Shown here one piece after another: positions 55,299-64,000 of a DNA stretch of 64,000 nt. The stretch spans positions 310,001 through 374,000 of the forward strand of contig JAEKKX010000006.1 of NCBI GenBank assembly GCA_019510125.1, written 5' to 3'. Origin of the DNA: Lysobacterales bacterium. GTDB taxonomy: Bacteria > Pseudomonadota > Gammaproteobacteria > Xanthomonadales > Xanthomonadaceae. Every line of letters begins with the position of its first letter. The first letter of the stretch is position 1. The notes beneath the pieces are model-generated. The model saw only the letters and a program-made list of their open reading frames with translations. It ran no database searches and was not told the DNA's origin. The position numbers and the translations under genes were made by a program.

Positions 55299-57248
55299 AT
55301 GAGCTACCTCAACGCACTGCGGCTGCATTTCGCCGGCAGCTTCCAGGCCAACGTCTCGACGGTCAACAACGACCCGGGGCATTTCGACAACGCCGGCTTC
55401 GAGCCTGCGTACCAGCAGATGCAGGGCATCAACATGTTCCCCGCGAACGGCTGGTTCAACCCGCAGGGCGACGCCACCTGGCGGTTGCTCGGCTGCGCGA
55501 TCACCGCGGCCTGGATGCCGACGGCGTCCGCGCCGTCGGCGCCGGCGCCGGCGGACGATCCGGTGCTCGGGTATTCGATCGCCGACAGCGACGCGCACGC
55601 GCCGGCCAAGCTCGTGGACCTGGATTCCGAGCAGCAGATGGTCTCGGAGATCTGGGGGCTGGAGGTGCGGATCGCCGACGCCGCCGGCAACACCCTGCTG
55701 CGCGGCCAGTTCGAGCCGGCGGCCTTCATCGACATCTGGAACCGCGCGACCGCCGGCGGTGGCGGCGACATGACCATGGGCGCGATGTACCAGTCGGTGC
55801 TGACCTCGCTCGAATGGGGCGACGTGTCGGCCTCGCCGTTCCTGCTCGCGCTGCAGGCGGCCTCGGCCGCCAGCGGCCTGCTGTCGATCAAGTTCAACGT
55901 CGACGGCATCAACATGAACTACGACGCGCCCGATTTCATGTGCGGGCGCATCGCCGGCACCATCGGCCCGGCGGCTCCCGGCGAGCCGCATCACTGCGTG
56001 GTCGGCCGACAGTTCATGGCGACGGTGTCGCCGCAGAACCCGGTGACGCCGCAGAGCGTGCTCAACTTCTGCGCGGCGGTGGTCGATGCGACCGCATCGA
56101 TCGTCTACCTCGACCTCGGCAACGCCCTGCCGACGACGATCCCCGGCGGCCCGCCGGCCGACCTCGGCGATCTGGCGCTGTCGGTGTACGACCCGATCGC
56201 GACGCCCGCCAACCCCGCCGGCGCCACCACCCAGCTCGCGACGATCGCCGCCGCCACCTACCTCGGCGATCCCGACTGGTACGCGTGCACCGCGGGCGTG
56301 GTGGCCCTGCCGTTCGATCCCTCGCTGGCGACGCAGGTGGCCGCTTTCCCGCTGGTCGTCAGCGGCAGCGCGCCGGTGCAGGGCGTGCAGGCGGTGGTCT
56401 CCGAGGCGCCGACCGGCGCGTTCGTGCGCGCGGACACGTTCGTCTGGCGCGCCAGCCCCGGCGACACCCTGCAGATCCCGGTGCTGGCCACGCGCTTCGG
56501 ACAGCCGCTGGCCGGCGCGGGCCTGGTGTTCGCGGCGGACGCGTCGCAACTGCAGCCGAGCAACGCGATCGACCCGCAGGACGTGCCGCCGGTCGCGACG
56601 CCGCTGTCGGCGATCGGGTTCCCGACCGCGACCACGACGCTGTCCGCCACCACCGGCAGCGACGGCTGGGCGACGCTGACCCTGCCGATGACCGATCCGG
56701 GCACGCCGCGCTGGTTCAACGGCGGCGCCGACTACGGCATCGACGGCCAGGTCTACGGCGTGCGTCCCGCGTTCGCGAACACGCAGGACAACGGCCCGCT
56801 GAATCCGTGGAATTTCGTCTCGATCCTGCTGTGGAGCGGTTTCGCGCCGAAGACGCCGGGCGCGCCGACCTGGTTCGACGACCTGCAGCCGATCTTCCAG
56901 CAGTACGCGAACCTCTATCCGGTGATGAACCGCTTCCTCGACCTCGGCGACTACGCCTCGGTGGTCGCGAACCGGCGCCTGCTGCTGCTGGCCTTCGGCC
57001 TGGACGCCGGCAATCCCAACGTGATGCCGGTGACCCGCGACCTGTCGCCCGCCAAGCGCCAGGCGATCCTGCAGTGGCTGCAGCAGCCCTCGCCGCCGCA
57101 GGGCACGCCGCCGCCGGCCGCCAAGGCCCGGCAGATGGCGAAGAAGACCGCCGCCGCGCCGCCGTCCGCGGTCATGCCCAAGGGCGGCAAGACCGCCGCG
57201 CTCGCCCGTCGCGTCGTCCTGCAGTCCCGCACCGGAGAAACGCCATGA
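55299..57248 (+). CDS. Protein resembling the N-terminal half of VioB/RebD-type enzymes
   Basis: This 649-residue soluble protein begins MSYLNALRLHFAGSFQANVSTVNNDP. That resembles the start of VioB (a short hydrophobic PRIHF-type strand followed by NAPTANRDP-like sequence). Residues about 530-600 (QYANLYPVMNRFLDLGDYAS and PVTRDLSPAKRQAILQWL) line up well with the VioB segment YELVYPFMSDKVFSLAD / STRELSAPKARLFLKYL, which in VioB directly precedes the ferritin-like half. The comparison is from memory and was not computed. The C-terminus is Ala/Lys-rich. Its stop overlaps the ferritin-like gene by four bases, so the pair may form one split enzyme. Confidence 0.7.
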   Translation: MSYLNALRLHFAGSFQANVSTVNNDPGHFDNAGFEPAYQQMQGINMFPANGWFNPQGDATWRLLGCAITAAWMPTASAPSAPAPADDPVLGYSIADSDAHAPAKLVDLDSEQQMVSEIWGLEVRIADAAGNTLLRGQFEPAAFIDIWNRATAGGGGDMTMGAMYQSVLTSLEWGDVSASPFLLALQAASAASGLLSIKFNVDGINMNYDAPDFMCGRIAGTIGPAAPGEPHHCVVGRQFMATVSPQNPVTPQSVLNFCAAVVDATASIVYLDLGNALPTTIPGGPPADLGDLALSVYDPIATPANPAGATTQLATIAAATYLGDPDWYACTAGVVALPFDPSLATQVAAFPLVVSGSAPVQGVQAVVSEAPTGAFVRADTFVWRASPGDTLQIPVLATRFGQPLAGAGLVFAADASQLQPSNAIDPQDVPPVATPLSAIGFPTATTTLSATTGSDGWATLTLPMTDPGTPRWFNGGADYGIDGQVYGVRPAFANTQDNGPLNPWNFVSILLWSGFAPKTPGAPTWFDDLQPIFQQYANLYPVMNRFLDLGDYASVVANRRLLLLAFGLDAGNPNVMPVTRDLSPAKRQAILQWLQQPSPPQGTPPPAAKARQMAKKTAAAPPSAVMPKGGKTAALARRVVLQSRTGETP

Positions 57249-58306
57249 TCTTCCTCAAACGCGCCCTCGTCGAAGGCCTGAAGACGCCGACCCCGGACTC
57301 GGTCGCGACCGCGCTGCAGAGCGCGATCGAGCTGGAGCACGCGACCATCCCCGCCTACCTGTACGCGCTGTATTCGCTGGACCCGGCGCGCAACGCGGCG
57401 GTCGCCGGGATCGTGCAGTCGGTGGCGTTCGAGGAAATGCTGCACATGACCCTCGCGGCGAACGTGCTCAACGCCATCGGCGGCACGCCCTGCATCGACA
57501 CCCCGGACTTCATCCCGAGCTATCCCGGTCCGCTGCCGGGCAGCGTGGAAGGCGGGCTGATCGTGCACCTGGCGCCGTTCTCGTCCGAGCAGTTGCTGAC
57601 CTTCCTGCAGATCGAACAGCCCGAGAACGCGATCGACATCCCGATCGTCAATCCGCTGACCGGCGATATCCCGACGCCCGAGCCCGACGGTGCGATCACC
57701 ATCGGGGCGTTCTACCAGGCGATCCTGGCGGCGCTGGCGCAGTTGCCGGCGTCGGCCTTCCAGAACCCGGCGCGCAACCAGGTCGGCCCCGACCTGATGC
57801 CCGAGGCGGTGGTGGTGACCGATCTGGCCTCGGCGCAGCAGGCGCTGAACACGATCGTCGAACAGGGCGAAGGCAACACCACCTCGCCGCTGGAGGTCGT
57901 GGGCGGCGGCTACGCGCACTACTACCGGTTCCTGCAGATCTTCGCCGGCAGCACGCTGCAGCCGGCGGCCGGGCAGACGCCGCCGTGGGCGTTCGGCGCG
58001 CCGCCGATTTCGCTGGACGTCGAAGGCATCCACCCGCTGCCGAGCGATCCGAAGGCGGCGAACTACCCGGCGGGCACGGCGCAGGCCTTCGCCAACGACA
58101 CCTTCAACTACACCTACACGTCGCTGCTGAAGGTCCTGCACGCGTTGTTCAACGGCCAGAACACCCAGGACTGCATGAACGACGCCATCGCGCTGATGAT
58201 GTCGCTCAAGGGCCAGGCCCGCGCGATGATGGCCGGCATCCCGAACCCGGCCGGGCCGTACACCGGCCCGAGTTTCGAATACCAGCCGACCAATCCCGCG
58301 CCCTGA
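57245..58306 (+). CDS. Ferritin-like protein, iminophenyl-pyruvate dimer synthase (VioB C-terminal) family
   Basis: The 353-residue protein begins with a ferritin-like four-helix domain. AIELEHATIPAYLYALYS (Glu29, Glu31, His32) and AFEEMLHMTLAANVLNAIGG (Glu63, Glu64, His67) supply di-metal ligands. The pattern ELE...LYAxYS then EEMxHxxLxxNxLxALG is that of the VioB/StaD/RebD C-terminal domain, which couples two indole-pyruvate imines. No amino-acid oxidase (VioA/RebO) gene is in the window, so the substrate here is unknown. It is translated together with the preceding gene. An inverted repeat follows its stop. Confidence 0.85.
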   Translation: MIFLKRALVEGLKTPTPDSVATALQSAIELEHATIPAYLYALYSLDPARNAAVAGIVQSVAFEEMLHMTLAANVLNAIGGTPCIDTPDFIPSYPGPLPGSVEGGLIVHLAPFSSEQLLTFLQIEQPENAIDIPIVNPLTGDIPTPEPDGAITIGAFYQAILAALAQLPASAFQNPARNQVGPDLMPEAVVVTDLASAQQALNTIVEQGEGNTTSPLEVVGGGYAHYYRFLQIFAGSTLQPAAGQTPPWAFGAPPISLDVEGIHPLPSDPKAANYPAGTAQAFANDTFNYTYTSLLKVLHALFNGQNTQDCMNDAIALMMSLKGQARAMMAGIPNPAGPYTGPSFEYQPTNPAP

Positions 58307-60300: not shown

Positions 60301-60504
60301 TTACCAGGCCCAGTCGTCGTCGCAGCCATCGTCGCCACCGTCGCCGTTCGGCGTGACGGTGACGGTGTTGAGGCGGATCGGCTCCTGCGGCTGCAGGCCG
60401 ACGTTGGAGAGACGACCGCCGGTCACGGCTTCGAGTTCGTGCTCGCGCAGTTCGCGCAGCTCACCGTGATCCTGCTCATGCAGCTTCATGACAAACGGCT
60501 TCAT
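60301..60504 (-). CDS. RiPP precursor peptide with double-glycine leader (graspetide-like)
   Basis: The 67-residue peptide starts at 60504, seven bases after an excellent AAAGGAG. The leader MKPFVMKLHEQD contains a PFxxxL-type helix start as in graspetide leaders and ends LREHELEAVTGG, the double-glycine site cut by C39 peptidases, after residue 30. The 37-residue core has Thr47, Thr49 and Thr51 followed by a cluster of six Asp and one Cys, ending DDDWAW. Thr donors and Asp acceptors are what an ATP-grasp ligase would join into ester rings. It is the last gene of an HlyD, ATP-grasp, C39-ABC operon. Confidence 0.85.
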   Translation of the reverse strand: MKPFVMKLHEQDHGELRELREHELEAVTGGRLSNVGLQPQEPIRLNTVTVTPNGDGGDDGCDDDWAW

Positions 60505-60592
60505 ATGGAGCTCCTTTGCTTCAGTATCGGCACAGTCCCCCTGCACCGTGGGTCCGGAATGCACCGGCATCCGTTCCGCGGTCGTCGCCGCG

Positions 60593-62701
60593 TCAATCCA
60601 TGCGTTCGGCCGCCTCCTTCGGCGCCGTGTCCTGTTTCGACGGCCGGTAGTCGCGCACGATGCGGCCGCCCTCCATCAGCAGCACGCGATCGGCGCTGGC
60701 GATGGTTTCCGGGCGGTGCGCGACGATGATCCGGGTCAGTTCGAGCGCGCCGACCGCGGTGTTGACCAGTCGTTCGCGCTCGACGTCGAGGTGGCTGGTG
60801 GCCTCGTCGAGGATCAGCAGCATCGGCCGGCGGTACAGCGCGCGCGCCATCAGGATGCGCTGGCGCTGGCCGCCGGACAGCGAGCTGCCCATGTCGCCGA
60901 TCAGGGTCTGGTAGCCCATCGGCATGGCGACGATGTCGTCGTGGACCGCGGCCCTGCGCGCGGCTTCCTCGATCCGCGCCTGGTCCCAGGCGTCGCCGAA
61001 CAGGCTGATGTTCTCGCCGATCGAACCGGCGAACAGTTGATCGTCCTGCATCACCACGCCGGCGCTGCGGCGGAAGTTCGCCGGGCCCAGGTGCTTGAGC
61101 GGCACGCCGTCGATGCGGATCTCGCCGGCCACCGGGGTCAGCAGGCCCAGCAGCAGCTTGACCAGCGTGCTCTTGCCGCATCCCGAGGGGCCGGCGATGG
61201 CCACCGACTCGCCGTGGCCGATGTCGAGGTCGCAGTTGGCGATGACCCACGGCTCGCCGTCCGCGTAGCGGAAGCTCAGCGAGCGCGCCTGGATCAGCGG
61301 CGGCTTCGCCAGCGGTTCGGTCGCCTGTTCGACCGGTTCGGGCTCGGTCATCACGATGTCGGCCAGGCGCTCGCCGTGCAGCCGCAGCATGCGGAACTCC
61401 ATCGCGCGGTCGATCAGGGCGGCCACGCGCTGGGTGAACTGTTCCTTGTACGCGAGGTAGGCGATCAGCATGCCGACGGTGAAGGTGCCGTCGAGCGCGA
61501 ACGACGCGCCGATCCAGATCACCGCGACGCGTTCCAGGCCGACGATCAGCGCGTTGCTCTGCGAGAACACCAGGTCCACGCGCGCCAGCCAGACCTCGCG
61601 GTCGATCGTGCGCCGCAGCAGGTTGAGGTAGGACGACCGCCGCTGGCCCTCGATGCCGGAGACCTTGATGGTCTGCATGCCGCGCGCGGTCTCGAAGAAG
61701 TGCGACTGCTGGCGCGCGGCCTCGACCAGTTGCTGCTCGCTGCCGTCGCGGAAGCGCCGGAAGGTCGCCATGCGCAGGCCCAGGTACAGCACCACCGCGA
61801 CCAGCGTCACCATCACCAGCGACGGGCTGTAGGCCAGCATCATCGCCAGGGTGGCCAGCGCCATCAGGCCGTCGACGACCGCTTCCACGAAGTTGGTGGT
61901 GATGGTTTGCTGGATCCGCTGCACCGAGCCGATGCGCGACACGATGTCGCCTAGGTGGCGCTTCTCGAAGTAGTCCAGCGGCAGCCGCAGCAGGTGGGCG
62001 AACACGTTGGCCATCCACTGCAGCCCGAACCGCGCGGAGAGGTAGACCACCGTCCAGCCGCGCAGCACCGAGACCGCCACCTGGATCACGACCAGCATCG
62101 CGAAACCGATGCCGAGCACGGTCAGCAGCGACGCGTCGGCCGAGACCAGCACCTGGTCCACGACCCACTGCATGTAGAACGGGGTCGCGAGCACGAATAC
62201 CTGCAGCGCGAGCGACAGCGTCAGCAGCAGCGCCAGCGCGCGCCAGAACCCGCGCACGGGCCCGGTCAGCTTGCGCAGGCTCACCGCTTCGCGGCGCGCG
62301 TCCGGGGTGAATTCCTGGCCGGGCTCCAGTTCCAGCGCGACGCCGGTGAAGTGGCGCGAGACCTCGGCGATCGGCAGCGTCCGTCGCCCGAGCGCGGGGT
62401 CGAGCACGACCACGCTGTCGCGGCGCACACTTTCGAGGACCACGAAATGGTTGAGGTCCCAGTGCAGGATCGCGGGCGTGTCCAGCCGCGACAGGCCTTC
62501 CAGTTCCAGGCGCAGGGCGCGACCGTGCAGGCCGAGCTTGCCGGCGATGTCGATCAACTGGCTCAGGCGCAGGCCCTTGAGCGACATCGGGAACCGGCGC
62601 CGCATCTCCGGCATGCCGATCTCCAGCCCGTGGTGCGCGGCGACCATCGCCAGGCACGCGAGCCCGCACTCGGAGGCCTCGGTCTGCACGACGCCCCGCA
62701 T
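60593..62701 (-). CDS. C39 peptidase-containing ABC exporter (PCAT)
   Basis: The 702-residue protein combines a leader peptidase with an exporter. Residues 1-130 are a C39 protease: Gln6, Cys12 (ASECGLACLAMVAAHHG), His85 (DLNHFVVLE) and Asp101 form the active site. Six membrane helices follow (about 150-430). The ATPase carries Walker A GPSGCGKST (504-512), signature SSLSGGQRQRI, Walker B LLILDEATSHLD and H-loop VAHRPET. It should cut the precursor after Gly-Gly and export the core. The gap to the ATP-grasp gene is 54 bases, and the precursor gene follows after 88 bases. Confidence 0.95.
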   Translation of the reverse strand: MRGVVQTEASECGLACLAMVAAHHGLEIGMPEMRRRFPMSLKGLRLSQLIDIAGKLGLHGRALRLELEGLSRLDTPAILHWDLNHFVVLESVRRDSVVVLDPALGRRTLPIAEVSRHFTGVALELEPGQEFTPDARREAVSLRKLTGPVRGFWRALALLLTLSLALQVFVLATPFYMQWVVDQVLVSADASLLTVLGIGFAMLVVIQVAVSVLRGWTVVYLSARFGLQWMANVFAHLLRLPLDYFEKRHLGDIVSRIGSVQRIQQTITTNFVEAVVDGLMALATLAMMLAYSPSLVMVTLVAVVLYLGLRMATFRRFRDGSEQQLVEAARQQSHFFETARGMQTIKVSGIEGQRRSSYLNLLRRTIDREVWLARVDLVFSQSNALIVGLERVAVIWIGASFALDGTFTVGMLIAYLAYKEQFTQRVAALIDRAMEFRMLRLHGERLADIVMTEPEPVEQATEPLAKPPLIQARSLSFRYADGEPWVIANCDLDIGHGESVAIAGPSGCGKSTLVKLLLGLLTPVAGEIRIDGVPLKHLGPANFRRSAGVVMQDDQLFAGSIGENISLFGDAWDQARIEEAARRAAVHDDIVAMPMGYQTLIGDMGSSLSGGQRQRILMARALYRRPMLLILDEATSHLDVERERLVNTAVGALELTRIIVAHRPETIASADRVLLMEGGRIVRDYRPSKQDTAPKEAAERMD

Positions 62702-62755
62702 CAGGCGGCCCCGCGGCGGGCGGGCGCGGCGACGGCCGCGGGCAGGGAGGTCGCG

Positions 62756-63796
62756 TCAGGCATGGGCGGATTCCGCCTCCGCCGTCGGCGTCGTGGCCGT
62801 CGCGGTCGAGAACAGCCTGCGCCGGAACGCGGCCGCGAACTCGCGGGTGAGCGCGCCGTCCACGATCTCGTCCAGCCAGCCCCAGGCGCCGTCCTGGTTG
62901 CATTCCAGGAACCAGGCGTCGCCGTCGGGATCGACCACGATGTCGACGCTGCCGGAGAACAGGCCCATCGCCGCCATGTAGGCGCGGAGCCGGTCCACCA
63001 GCGCGTTGTCGATGCCGCAGGGCTTGTAGTCGAGCAGGTGGACGCCCTTGCGCCAGTCGACGGTCGAGGACTGCAGCGCCTGCGAATCGATCCGGAACGC
63101 GTGCGGCTTGCCGTCGATCATCACCACCCGCAGTTCGTGGTCCTTGCGGATCTCGTGCTGGAAGACGTGCGGGCAGTAGCCGATGTCGCCGTCCTCGGCG
63201 CCGGACAGCGCCGCTTCGGAGACGCGCATGGTCATGATGTTGAAGGGCACGCTGCCGCCGGAGGGACCGGGCGCGACCTTGCCCGCGCTGAGCGACTTGA
63301 GGATCAGCCCGGACGGCGCGTCGCGCATCAGCGCCAGCGCGGCCGCCTTGTCGGTGGTGACCAGGGTCATCGGCACCTTCAGGCCGACGCCGGACGCGAC
63401 GATCTGCTGGTAGGGCTTGAGCAGGCAGCGCTTGGCGTCGAACGAATTGACCACCCGGTCGCCGTACAGGCAGGAGACGAGCTGGTACAGCGCGCGCCAT
63501 TCGCGCGCCACGAAGCTGGTGACGCTCGGGTCGTCGCCTTTGACGTAGACCGTGGTGCCCGGAATGATCTTGCTGCGATCCCAGATCAGCAGCCGGTCGG
63601 GCAGCGGGACGCCGCCGACCGACAGCCCGGTCCTGCCGGCGCCGTCGACGGTCAGCGAAACCCGGACGTCGTCGCGATAGTCGAGCACTTCGACCCGGAG
63701 GTCGCCGCCGCGCGCCATCTCGTCGGCCACGCGCTCGACGTGCGGGTCGGCCCGGGTGCCCAGGATCACGAAGGCGTGGTCGCGCTGGCTGTTCAT
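62756..63796 (-). CDS. ATP-grasp peptide ligase, MvdC/MvdD type (graspetide synthetase)
   Basis: The 346-residue enzyme starts at 63796 with GAGGA seven bases upstream; an in-frame ATG at 63820 is possible. It has the layout of RiPP ATP-grasp ligases: an N-terminal pre-ATP-grasp part (VILGTRADPHVERVADEM, LLIWDRSKI), the central lysine region (LILKSLSAGKVAP), FQHEIRKDHELRVVMIDGKP and the metal-binding end SVDIVVDPDGDAWFLECNQD. These match MvdC/MvdD, which form omega-ester or omega-amide rings in microviridin-type peptides. The precursor and its exporter are adjacent, so this is the likely core-modifying enzyme. Confidence 0.9.
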   Translation of the reverse strand: MNSQRDHAFVILGTRADPHVERVADEMARGGDLRVEVLDYRDDVRVSLTVDGAGRTGLSVGGVPLPDRLLIWDRSKIIPGTTVYVKGDDPSVTSFVAREWRALYQLVSCLYGDRVVNSFDAKRCLLKPYQQIVASGVGLKVPMTLVTTDKAAALALMRDAPSGLILKSLSAGKVAPGPSGGSVPFNIMTMRVSEAALSGAEDGDIGYCPHVFQHEIRKDHELRVVMIDGKPHAFRIDSQALQSSTVDWRKGVHLLDYKPCGIDNALVDRLRAYMAAMGLFSGSVDIVVDPDGDAWFLECNQDGAWGWLDEIVDGALTREFAAAFRRRLFSTATATTPTAEAESAHA

Positions 63797-63902
63797 TCCG
63801 TTGTCCTCGTCATGGTCCATTCAAAGCGTTGCCCGGCCCGCGCGCGCAGATGGCAGCGACGCGGCGACGCGGCGTGCGGGGGGCGTCCGGTGCGCGCGGA
63901 CG

Positions 63903-64000
63903 TCAGTCACCGAGGTTCCCCGACAGCGACTGCAGCGGATCGAGCACCCATTCCCAGAGCATCCGGCGCTCGCCCAGGATGTCCGCCTCCAGCAGCATGC
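63903..64000 (-). CDS. C-terminus of an HlyD-family secretion protein, cut by the window edge
   Basis: Thirty-one residues and a stop are visible, reading MLLEADILGERRMLWEWVLD and ending SLSGNLGD. This is the typical C-terminus of HlyD/CvaA-type periplasmic adaptors that work with C39-ABC exporters. The rest lies beyond the right edge. The gap to the ATP-grasp gene is 106 bases with no further small gene seen. It places an adaptor at the start of the RiPP cluster. Confidence 0.8.
   Translation of the reverse strand, partial: MLLEADILGERRMLWEWVLDPLQSLSGNLGD

What the first reader, a model, noticed from the sequence alone, without database searches (positions are those of the whole stretch)
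60301..64000. RiPP cluster of a probable new graspetide
Precursor with a GG-cleaved leader, MvdC/D-type ATP-grasp, C39 peptidase-ABC exporter and HlyD adaptor. The core TVTVTP...GDGGDDGCDDD places three Thr before an Asp-rich block and ends WAW. I do not recognise this ring pattern from microviridins, plesiocins or other described groups.
Basis: partly seen in the sequence, partly recalled or inferred. Interest (0 to 1): 0.88.

Follow-up and report, generated by a model that had tools for sequence, protein, structure and literature searches.

The report
Graspetide gene cluster in a Lysobacter relative
This stretch encodes a small secreted peptide that an ATP-using enzyme very probably ties into rings through ester bonds; it belongs to a known class of natural products (graspetides), in a rare and apparently untested family with its own ring-forming pattern.

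Summary
On the minus strand lie, in order, an HlyD adaptor, an ATP-grasp ligase of the graspetide-synthetase family, a C39-peptidase ABC exporter and a 67-residue precursor with a GG-ended leader. Eleven precursors at 8 of 9 ligase loci keep the leader motif and, in the core, invariant D-D-G-x-D preceded by Thr in alternate positions (exactly -11, -9, -7 in 8 of 11). I infer three Thr-to-Asp macrolactones (-54 Da), cleavage at GG and export. In 395 family genomes precursor and ligase are found in the same five. An EreA/ChaN-like protein is encoded beside the ligase operon at 6 of 9 loci, but it also occurs without it. 'New' is only partly supported. A 2022 survey already describes a gammaproteobacterial graspetide locus of this make-up (C39 peptidase plus erythromycin-esterase homologue) and a Lysobacter precursor cluster, and a Lysobacter capsici graspetide of group 19 has been expressed, with up to three water losses. 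Their sequences are in figures and supplements I could not read, so identity with one of them is open. I saw no TxTxT...DDGxD core in the texts searched. Most likely: a new or already catalogued, structurally uncharacterised family of a known class.

The parts
60301..60504 (-). Precursor peptide gene, 67 aa (30-aa leader ending GG, 37-aa core)
   Evidence: ORF with AAAGGAG upstream; aligned with 10 homologues; purifying selection
60415..60504 (-). Leader MKPFVMKLHEQDHGELRELREHELEAVTGG: Phhx(1,2)h motif (PFVMKL), predicted ligase-binding, and GG cleavage site
   Evidence: P3, F4, E10, D12, V27, G29 invariant in 11 of 11 rows (renumbered with Met1); motif as defined in PMC8939145 section 5
60352..60366 (-). 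TVTVT (T47, T49, T51): predicted ester donors
   Evidence: Thr exactly at -11, -9, -7 before DDGxD in 8 of 11 precursors
60319..60333 (-). DDGCD (D58, D59, D62): predicted acceptors
   Evidence: D, D, G and last D invariant in 11 of 11
60593..62701 (-). C39 peptidase-ABC exporter (PCAT), predicted to cut after GG and export the core
   Evidence: PF03412, PF00664, PF00005 above cut-off; TIGR03796 519 bits, below its 853.3-bit cut-off
62756..63820 (-). ATP-grasp ligase of the graspetide-synthetase family, predicted macrocyclase
   Evidence: TIGR04187 142.8 bits of 350; PDB hits 5ig8, 7m4s (AMdnB), 9bou, 7mgv (CdnC), 5ig9, and by profile 7drm; K135, K175, E229-L230-R231, D255-W256-R257, E306, N308 invariant in 9 rows
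63903..64000 (-). HlyD periplasmic adaptor, C-terminal end; the gene continues to about 65162 outside the window (L006:1903-3162)
   Evidence: Pfam HlyD_3 above cut-off; TIGR01843 131.3 bits, below its cut-off of 208.65

Best explanation
This is a graspetide (omega-ester RiPP) operon. The leader of the 67-residue precursor docks on the ATP-grasp ligase through its PFVMKL motif. The ligase phosphorylates Asp58, Asp59 and Asp62 and the hydroxyls of Thr47, Thr49 and Thr51 attack them, giving three macrolactones (-54 Da) that pin a short TVTVT strand, whose alternate Thr face one side, to the DDGxD segment across a Gly-rich turn. The C39 domain cuts after Gly29-Gly30, and the ABC transporter with HlyD and an outer-membrane channel releases the 37-residue peptide (expected monoisotopic mass 3955.82 Da with three water losses). 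An EreA/ChaN-like protein, probably periplasmic and encoded divergently next to HlyD, may open the lactones (self-protection) or trim the product. Shown here: gene content, homology, conservation, co-occurrence. Inferred: chemistry, ring number and pairing, export, bioactivity.
For: Ligase: the top four of its five NCBIfam hits are RiPP ATP-grasp maturase models. The PDB hits (5 by phmmer at E 0.01, 6 by profile at E 0.1) include AMdnB and CdnC; 5ig8, 5ig9 and 7drm are MdnB, MdnC and PsnB by recall, their records saying only ATP-grasp. Key positions are invariant in 9 rows. Precursors: 11 at 8 of 9 ligase loci, with T47, T49, D58, D59, G60, D62 invariant and T51 in 10 of 11; Thr at -11/-9/-7 in 8 of 11. 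In the window's core the only donors besides these three Thr are Ser33 and no Lys. Ligase and precursor are in the same 5 of 395 genomes. dN/dS of residues 47-67 is 0.06-0.13 over three pairs. Exporter at 7 of 9 loci, HlyD at 6 of 9. Precedent: rosaritide, from a TIGR04187 ligase with a PCAT, has three macrolactones from three Ser/Thr to three Asp by MS, variants and NMR (PMC13097080 section 8).
Against: No chemistry could be tested. The ligase is below the cut-offs of all five NCBIfam models it hits. Further acidic residues are well kept: Asp at -3 (D55) in 9 of 11 and Asp/Glu right after DDGxD (D63) in 9 of 11 (read off), so the acceptors are not fixed by conservation alone. L011 has Gly at the third Thr, and the first L009 precursor and L019 have shifted or extra Thr. 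L012 has only a precursor-like fragment without a leader start. The EreA/ChaN-like gene was not found in the fetched flanks of 3 of 9 loci (L009, L010, L013) and is in 33 of 395 genomes where this ligase was not found. L011 has no exporter or HlyD hit in its fetched flank.
Confidence: 0.74

Rival explanations
1. It is a graspetide, but the ring set is not the three named Thr-Asp lactones: two rings, a ring using D55 or D63, or a fourth ring in members with more donors.
For: D55 and an acidic residue at 63 are each kept in 9 of 11; L011 lacks the third Thr; L019 has four Thr in a row plus one more; Gra-8 of Lysobacter capsici was thought to have four conserved acceptors and gave at most three dehydrations (PMC9576775).
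Against: Only D58, D59 and D62 are invariant in 11 of 11, and Thr at -11/-9/-7 holds in 8 of 11.
Confidence: 0.33
2. The ligase does not macrocyclise; it adds a residue or makes another bond, and the product is a linear or otherwise modified exported acidic peptide.
For: ATP-grasp ligases also join peptides to other residues, as PGM1 in pheganomycin (PMC8939145 section 6).
Against: The named PDB relatives AMdnB and CdnC, and 5ig8/5ig9/7drm by recall, are graspetide synthetases; RimK family only E 0.068; donors and acceptors are the most conserved part of the core.
Confidence: 0.07
3. The EreA/ChaN-like protein is a chance neighbour and plays no part.
For: It is in 37 of 395 genomes, in 33 without this ligase. 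Of 20 regions fetched around homologues, 18 held it with no ligase, exporter or HlyD hit, one of them (L061) a 5.3-kb contig cut at the gene. It was not found at 3 of 9 cluster loci. Shuffled labels on its tree are as clustered in 41 of 500.
Against: It adjoins the ligase operon at 6 of 9 loci in two arrangements, and linked copies are interleaved with unlinked ones (4 changes), which fits repeated association, or loss of the cluster. PMC8939145 notes the same pairing.
Confidence: 0.35

Closest known systems
Graspetide loci of ATP-grasp branch 4, precursor cluster 2716 (PMC8939145)
   Same: Gammaproteobacterial; precursor with GG and Phhx(1,2)h motifs, ATP-grasp, C39 peptidase and an erythromycin-esterase-like protein; thought to spread horizontally.
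   Different: Its core consensus is in a figure and supplement that I could not read; only two sequences were in that cluster; identity is open.
Lysobacter precursor cluster 859, branch 3 (PMC8939145)
   Same: Lysobacter origin and a donor/acceptor configuration described as distinct.
   Different: Sequence not readable here; the text read mentions no esterase for it.
Gra-8 of Lysobacter capsici, group 19 (PMC9576775)
   Same: Related genus; at most three dehydrations; four C-terminal acceptors and at least four donors, a wording that the L019 member here would fit.
   Different: Sequence not available; in this family three acceptors are invariant and a fourth (D55) is kept in 9 of 11, absent from L019 itself.
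Rosaritide, group 21 (PMC13097080)
   Same: TIGR04187 ligase, PCAT exporter, three macrolactones between three Ser/Thr and three Asp.
   Different: Donors S8, S9, T11 and acceptors D22, D24, D26; its biosynthesis depends on a PPIase-like partner, none noted here; Micromonospora.
Thatisin, group 16 (Lysobacter antibioticus by recall; Ramesh 2021 not held)
   Same: Graspetide of a Lysobacter (recalled).
   Different: Two interlocking lactones (recalled); sequence not compared.
Microviridins, group 1
   Same: Homologous ligases.
   Different: Leader PFFARFL and core TxKxPSDxE (recalled) are absent; best PDB score 90 bits.

Membership tests
Graspetides | ATP-grasp ligase of the graspetide-synthetase family | tested here: met
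   RiPP ATP-grasp maturase models and graspetide-synthetase structures lead, though below NCBIfam cut-offs
Graspetides | Conserved catalytic and core-contact residues of these ligases | tested here: met
   K135, K175, ELR231, DWR255-257, E306/N308 invariant in 9 rows; ELR, DxR and ExN align in the PDB alignments except ELR in 9bou. Their roles are recalled.
Graspetides | Adjacent precursor with leader motif Phhx(1,2)h and a GG-type site | tested here: met
Graspetides | Core with conserved Ser/Thr/Lys donors and Asp/Glu acceptors | tested here: met
Graspetides | ATP-dependent side-chain ester or amide formation (loss of water) | not testable with these tools
   Needs co-expression and mass spectrometry
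Microviridins (group 1) | PFFARFL leader and MvdC/MvdD equivalog ligases | tested here: not met
   Leader is PFVMKLHE; MvdC 117.8 of 425 bits, MvdD 98.6 of 475
Plesiocin (group 2) | Repeated TTxxxxEE core (recalled) | tested here: not met
   No Glu pair and no such repeat in the 11 cores
Rosaritide (group 21) | Donor/acceptor spacing S8, S9, T11 / D22, D24, D26 | tested here: not met
Rosaritide (group 21) | PPIase-like partner gene | tested here: inconclusive
   None among the 10 neighbouring genes that I annotated by family or by eye; not every ORF around was scanned
Branch 4 / cluster 2716 loci of PMC8939145 | Precursor + ATP-grasp + C39 peptidase + erythromycin-esterase-like protein | tested here: met
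   All four present; the esterase-like label rests on the paper, on a recalled NExH motif and on PF04187 below cut-off
Branch 4 / cluster 2716 loci of PMC8939145 | Its core consensus | not testable with these tools
   Figure and supplement not held
Group 19 (Gra-8) | Four conserved C-terminal acceptors and at least four donors | tested here: inconclusive
   Three invariant acceptors, a fourth in 9 of 11; L019 would fit the wording; Gra-8 sequence not available

The most novel reading that the evidence does not exclude
A distinct, uncharacterised graspetide group whose core is a TxTxT strand tied by three esters to a DDGxD segment, and whose clusters have repeatedly acquired an EreA/ChaN-like hydrolase that opens the peptide's own macrolactones, giving self-protection or an off-switch for an ester-only peptide.
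Probability: 0.18. Interest if true: 0.6.

Novelty: new member of a known kind. Interest (0 to 1): 0.38.

Why it matters
If the rings form as predicted, the family adds a compact three-lactone scaffold with a clear, testable donor and acceptor code (Thr at -11, -9 and -7 before DDGxD) and natural variants, including four tandem precursors in Lysobacter psychrotolerans, for studying how one ligase tolerates shifted donors. The recurring esterase-like neighbour would make self-resistance to a graspetide, for which I read only proposals, directly testable.

Tried and rejected
Searched for the core motif in print: 'graspetide' (37 papers, 31 listed), 'thatisin', ATP-grasp/macrolactone/core peptide/Lysobacter, 'ester-containing peptide' with ATP-grasp, 'TxTxT' with graspetide terms (34 papers, 30 listed, 'TxTxT' in none of those 30), 'graspetide synthetase'/DxR/macrocyclase/plesiocin. 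'TVTVT' is not in the main text of PMC8939145. Most of these papers I saw only as listings. So absence from print is not shown.

Plasmid search with the ligase: 55 records, all under 60% identity. The precursor matched 0 Pfam families and 3 NCBIfam models, all below cut-off. A profile of the EreA/ChaN-like protein found 0 PDB sequences at E up to 1 and no NCBIfam model at its cut-off; PF04187 was hit below cut-off in 3 of the 5 members put to Pfam (window's, L008, L019; not L011 or L012; L007 was not run). Its fold and active site stay unproven.

Breadth: the class-level search found only the window's own genome of 369, the order-level one 3 of 398 (the window's included), both at E 1e-40, which would miss distant ligases. 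The genome searches score only the first few candidates of each genome, so their counts are lower bounds.

Considered and rejected: that base composition marks the window's operon as recently acquired. HlyD, ligase, exporter and the EreA/ChaN-like gene have GC3 0.90-0.95, neighbours 0.94-0.98; the short precursor has 0.84. A promoter scan around the precursor found none; 2 terminator-like sites (0.2 expected), one 67 bases past the precursor's stop on its strand. The ligase tree supported only the window/L007/L008 clade.

Rows dropped: L014 (56 residues matched); L016-L018 and L020-L022 (places already represented); L012's precursor-like fragment (E 1.6e-5); L059's EreA/ChaN-like copy (two overlapping frames) was left out of the tree. 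One search's HlyD query was off frame and was repeated correctly. A3's window row lacks Met1 because I gave coordinates three bases short. On checking, the confidence of the best explanation was lowered from 0.78 to 0.74 and rival 1 raised from 0.30 to 0.33 because D55 and residue 63 proved well conserved; the novel case went from 0.20 to 0.18 because L019 would fit the description of Gra-8.
Full report
What is there. The operon runs past the window's end, so I fetched the continuation (L006). On the minus strand, in order of transcription: HlyD adaptor (L006:1903-3162, that is 63903 to about 65162), ATP-grasp ligase (62756-63820), C39-peptidase ABC exporter (60593-62701) and precursor (60301-60504). 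The gaps are 82, 54 and 88 bases, which fits one operon. Divergently, at L006:3548-4765 (65548-66765), lies a 405-residue protein with a signal-like N-terminus (my reading) and a weak match to PF04187, the ChaN/Tiki family, 24.9 bits against a cut-off of 27.7. Beyond it is a dihydrouridine synthase. On the other side of the precursor, on the plus strand, is a YdjM-type gene.

The precursor reads MKPFVMKLHEQDHGELRELREHELEAVTGG | RLSNVGLQPQEPIRLNTVTVTPNGDGGDDGCDDDWAW. Its leader holds P-F-V-x-x-L, the Phhx(1,2)h motif that PMC8939145 derives for graspetide leaders (section 5), and ends in GG. The computed monoisotopic mass of the 37-residue core is 4009.85 Da, and 3955.82 Da after three water losses.

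Relatives. One scan of named genomes with the single ligase, which reaches close relatives only, gave 8 loci. I kept 7 (L014, a 56-residue match, was dropped) and added L019, the one genome of the family search not already represented; with the window that is 9 loci. Precursors were found at 8 of 9, 11 in all, four of them in tandem in Lysobacter psychrotolerans, L009. Aligned (numbering with Met1), P3, F4, E10, D12, V27, G29 of the leader and T47, T49, D58, D59, G60, D62 of the core are invariant in 11 of 11, and T51 holds in 10 of 11. Counted back from the first Asp of DDGxD, Thr sits at exactly -11, -9 and -7 in 8 of 11. The first L009 precursor has Thr at -14, -12, -10 and -8; L011 has Ser, Thr, Thr, Thr at -11 to -8; L019 has Thr at -11 to -8 and at -6. 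Two more acidic positions are well but not fully kept: Asp at -3 (D55) in 9 of 11, and Asp or Glu right after DDGxD (D63) in 9 of 11 (read off). The segment between GG and TxTxT varies in length and sequence.

Is it more than chance? Yes. In 395 genomes of the family the ligase (E 1e-30 or better) is found in 5 and the precursor profile (E 0.001 or better) in 5, and they are the same five; these searches score only the first candidates of each genome, so the counts are lower bounds. In the six cluster-bearing genomes searched with the precursor profile, five have one precursor and one (L009's) has four. For the three pairs of the window, L007 and L008, dN/dS is 0.20, 0.19 and 0.08 for the whole gene, 0.12, 0.27 and 0.02 for the leader, 0.58, 0.24 and 0.13 for residues 31-46 and 0.13, 0.06 and 0.08 for residues 47-67 (Nei-Gojobori counts on few sites, so approximate).

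The ligase. NCBIfam gives TIGR04187 142.8 bits, MvdC 117.8, MvdD 98.6, grasp-with-spasm 63.9 and RimK family E 0.068, each below its cut-off; Pfam gives none at E 0.001. PDB: phmmer 5 hits, profile 6 hits: AMdnB (7m4s), CdnC (7mgv), 5ig8, 5ig9, 9bou and 7drm; the last four records are named only as ATP-grasp or MvdD-like proteins, and I know 5ig8, 5ig9 and 7drm as MdnB, MdnC and PsnB by recall. The best pairwise score is 90 bits, so it is distant from the solved enzymes. K135, K175, ELR231, DWR255-257, E306 and N308 are invariant in the 9 family members.

How it most likely works. By analogy with characterised graspetides (PMC13097080 section 5), the ligase phosphorylates carboxylates and Thr hydroxyls attack; the strictly kept acceptors are D58, D59 and D62, and the window's core offers only T47, T49, T51 and Ser33 as donors. 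Alternate residues of a strand face one side, so TVTVT would present three hydroxyls together, and the Gly-rich NGDGG would let the chain turn back; this is inference. Rosaritide is a measured precedent for three Ser/Thr-Asp lactones made by a TIGR04187 ligase with a PCAT exporter, and its pairing is not simply nested (S8-D22, S9-D26, T11-D24; PMC13097080 section 8), so I do not predict pairing. The C39 domain should cut after GG; the exporter is at 7 of 9 loci and HlyD at 6 of 9 (L012's contig is only 3.8 kb).

The esterase-like neighbour adjoins the ligase operon at 6 of 9 loci: divergent from HlyD in the window, L007 and L008, and directly downstream of the ligase in L011, L012 and L019. 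It was not found in the fetched flanks of L009, L010 and L013. It is not exclusive: a profile finds it in 37 of 395 genomes, 4 of them among the 5 with the cluster. Of 20 regions that I fetched around homologues, L062 is the G292 cluster itself, L059 has a different ATP-grasp with exporter and HlyD, and the other 18 show the esterase-like gene with no ligase, exporter or HlyD hit; one of the 18, L061, is a 5.3-kb contig cut at the gene, and another, L044, is a second copy in G292. In a quick tree of 24 copies (6 linked, 17 alone, L061 unassigned), linked and unlinked copies interleave, with 4 changes, as many as starred branches force; shuffled labels need as few in 41 of 500, so the label is not clearly clustered. 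This fits repeated gain beside this cluster, or repeated loss of the cluster, or chance. PMC8939145 reports such a neighbour in its branch 4 loci and suggests modification or resistance.

What is known and what is new. PMC8939145 (abstract, section 5, section 6 parts 1-2 of 3, section 7, passages) catalogues 174 graspetide families, among them Lysobacter cluster 859 and the C39-plus-esterase cluster 2716. PMC9576775 (section 11 and passages) reports up to three dehydrations for Gra-8 of Lysobacter capsici, group 19, with four conserved C-terminal acceptors and at least four donors; the L019 core (E, then TTTTVT, then DD and D) would fit that wording, so this family may be group 19. PMC13097080 (sections 5, 7, 8 and passages) adds 19 groups to the earlier 24. 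I saw no TxTxT...DDGxD core in what I read or searched, but the consensus sequences are in figures and supplements. I therefore call it a new member of a known kind, quite possibly already listed, whose ring structure I have not seen described.

Noticed in passing
L007:9796-13062 and L008:7576-8184: A gene with condensation, AMP-binding and carrier domains (non-ribosomal peptide synthetase) starts downstream of the precursor in L007, in the same direction; L008 shows its start up to the contig end, with only a weak condensation match (E 0.009, below cut-off). The window has a YdjM-type gene there instead.
   Followed up: partly
L010:2141-5563: The HlyD and exporter genes of the Oleiagrimonas cluster have GC3 of 0.50 and 0.45 while neighbouring genes have 0.85-0.92, which suggests recent horizontal gain.
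   Followed up: no
L009:4555-5887: Four tandem precursors with differing cores (TNTWTIT, TVTFT, TVTIT, TVTIT) before one ligase in Lysobacter psychrotolerans.
   Followed up: yes
L059:4964-11890: In another genus of the family a different ATP-grasp gene lies with exporter and HlyD, a small ORF ending STGCD and an EreA/ChaN-like gene in two overlapping frames.
   Followed up: partly
L012:483-668: Precursor-like fragment with VAGG and TTWEVTAPADGGDVGCDE but no recognisable leader start.
   Followed up: partly
window 55299-58306: Two adjacent genes (649 and about 352 aa) without Pfam matches at E 0.001, followed by a DJ-1/PfpI gene; by eye they recall VioB-like and ferritin-like proteins (recalled, untested).
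   Followed up: no
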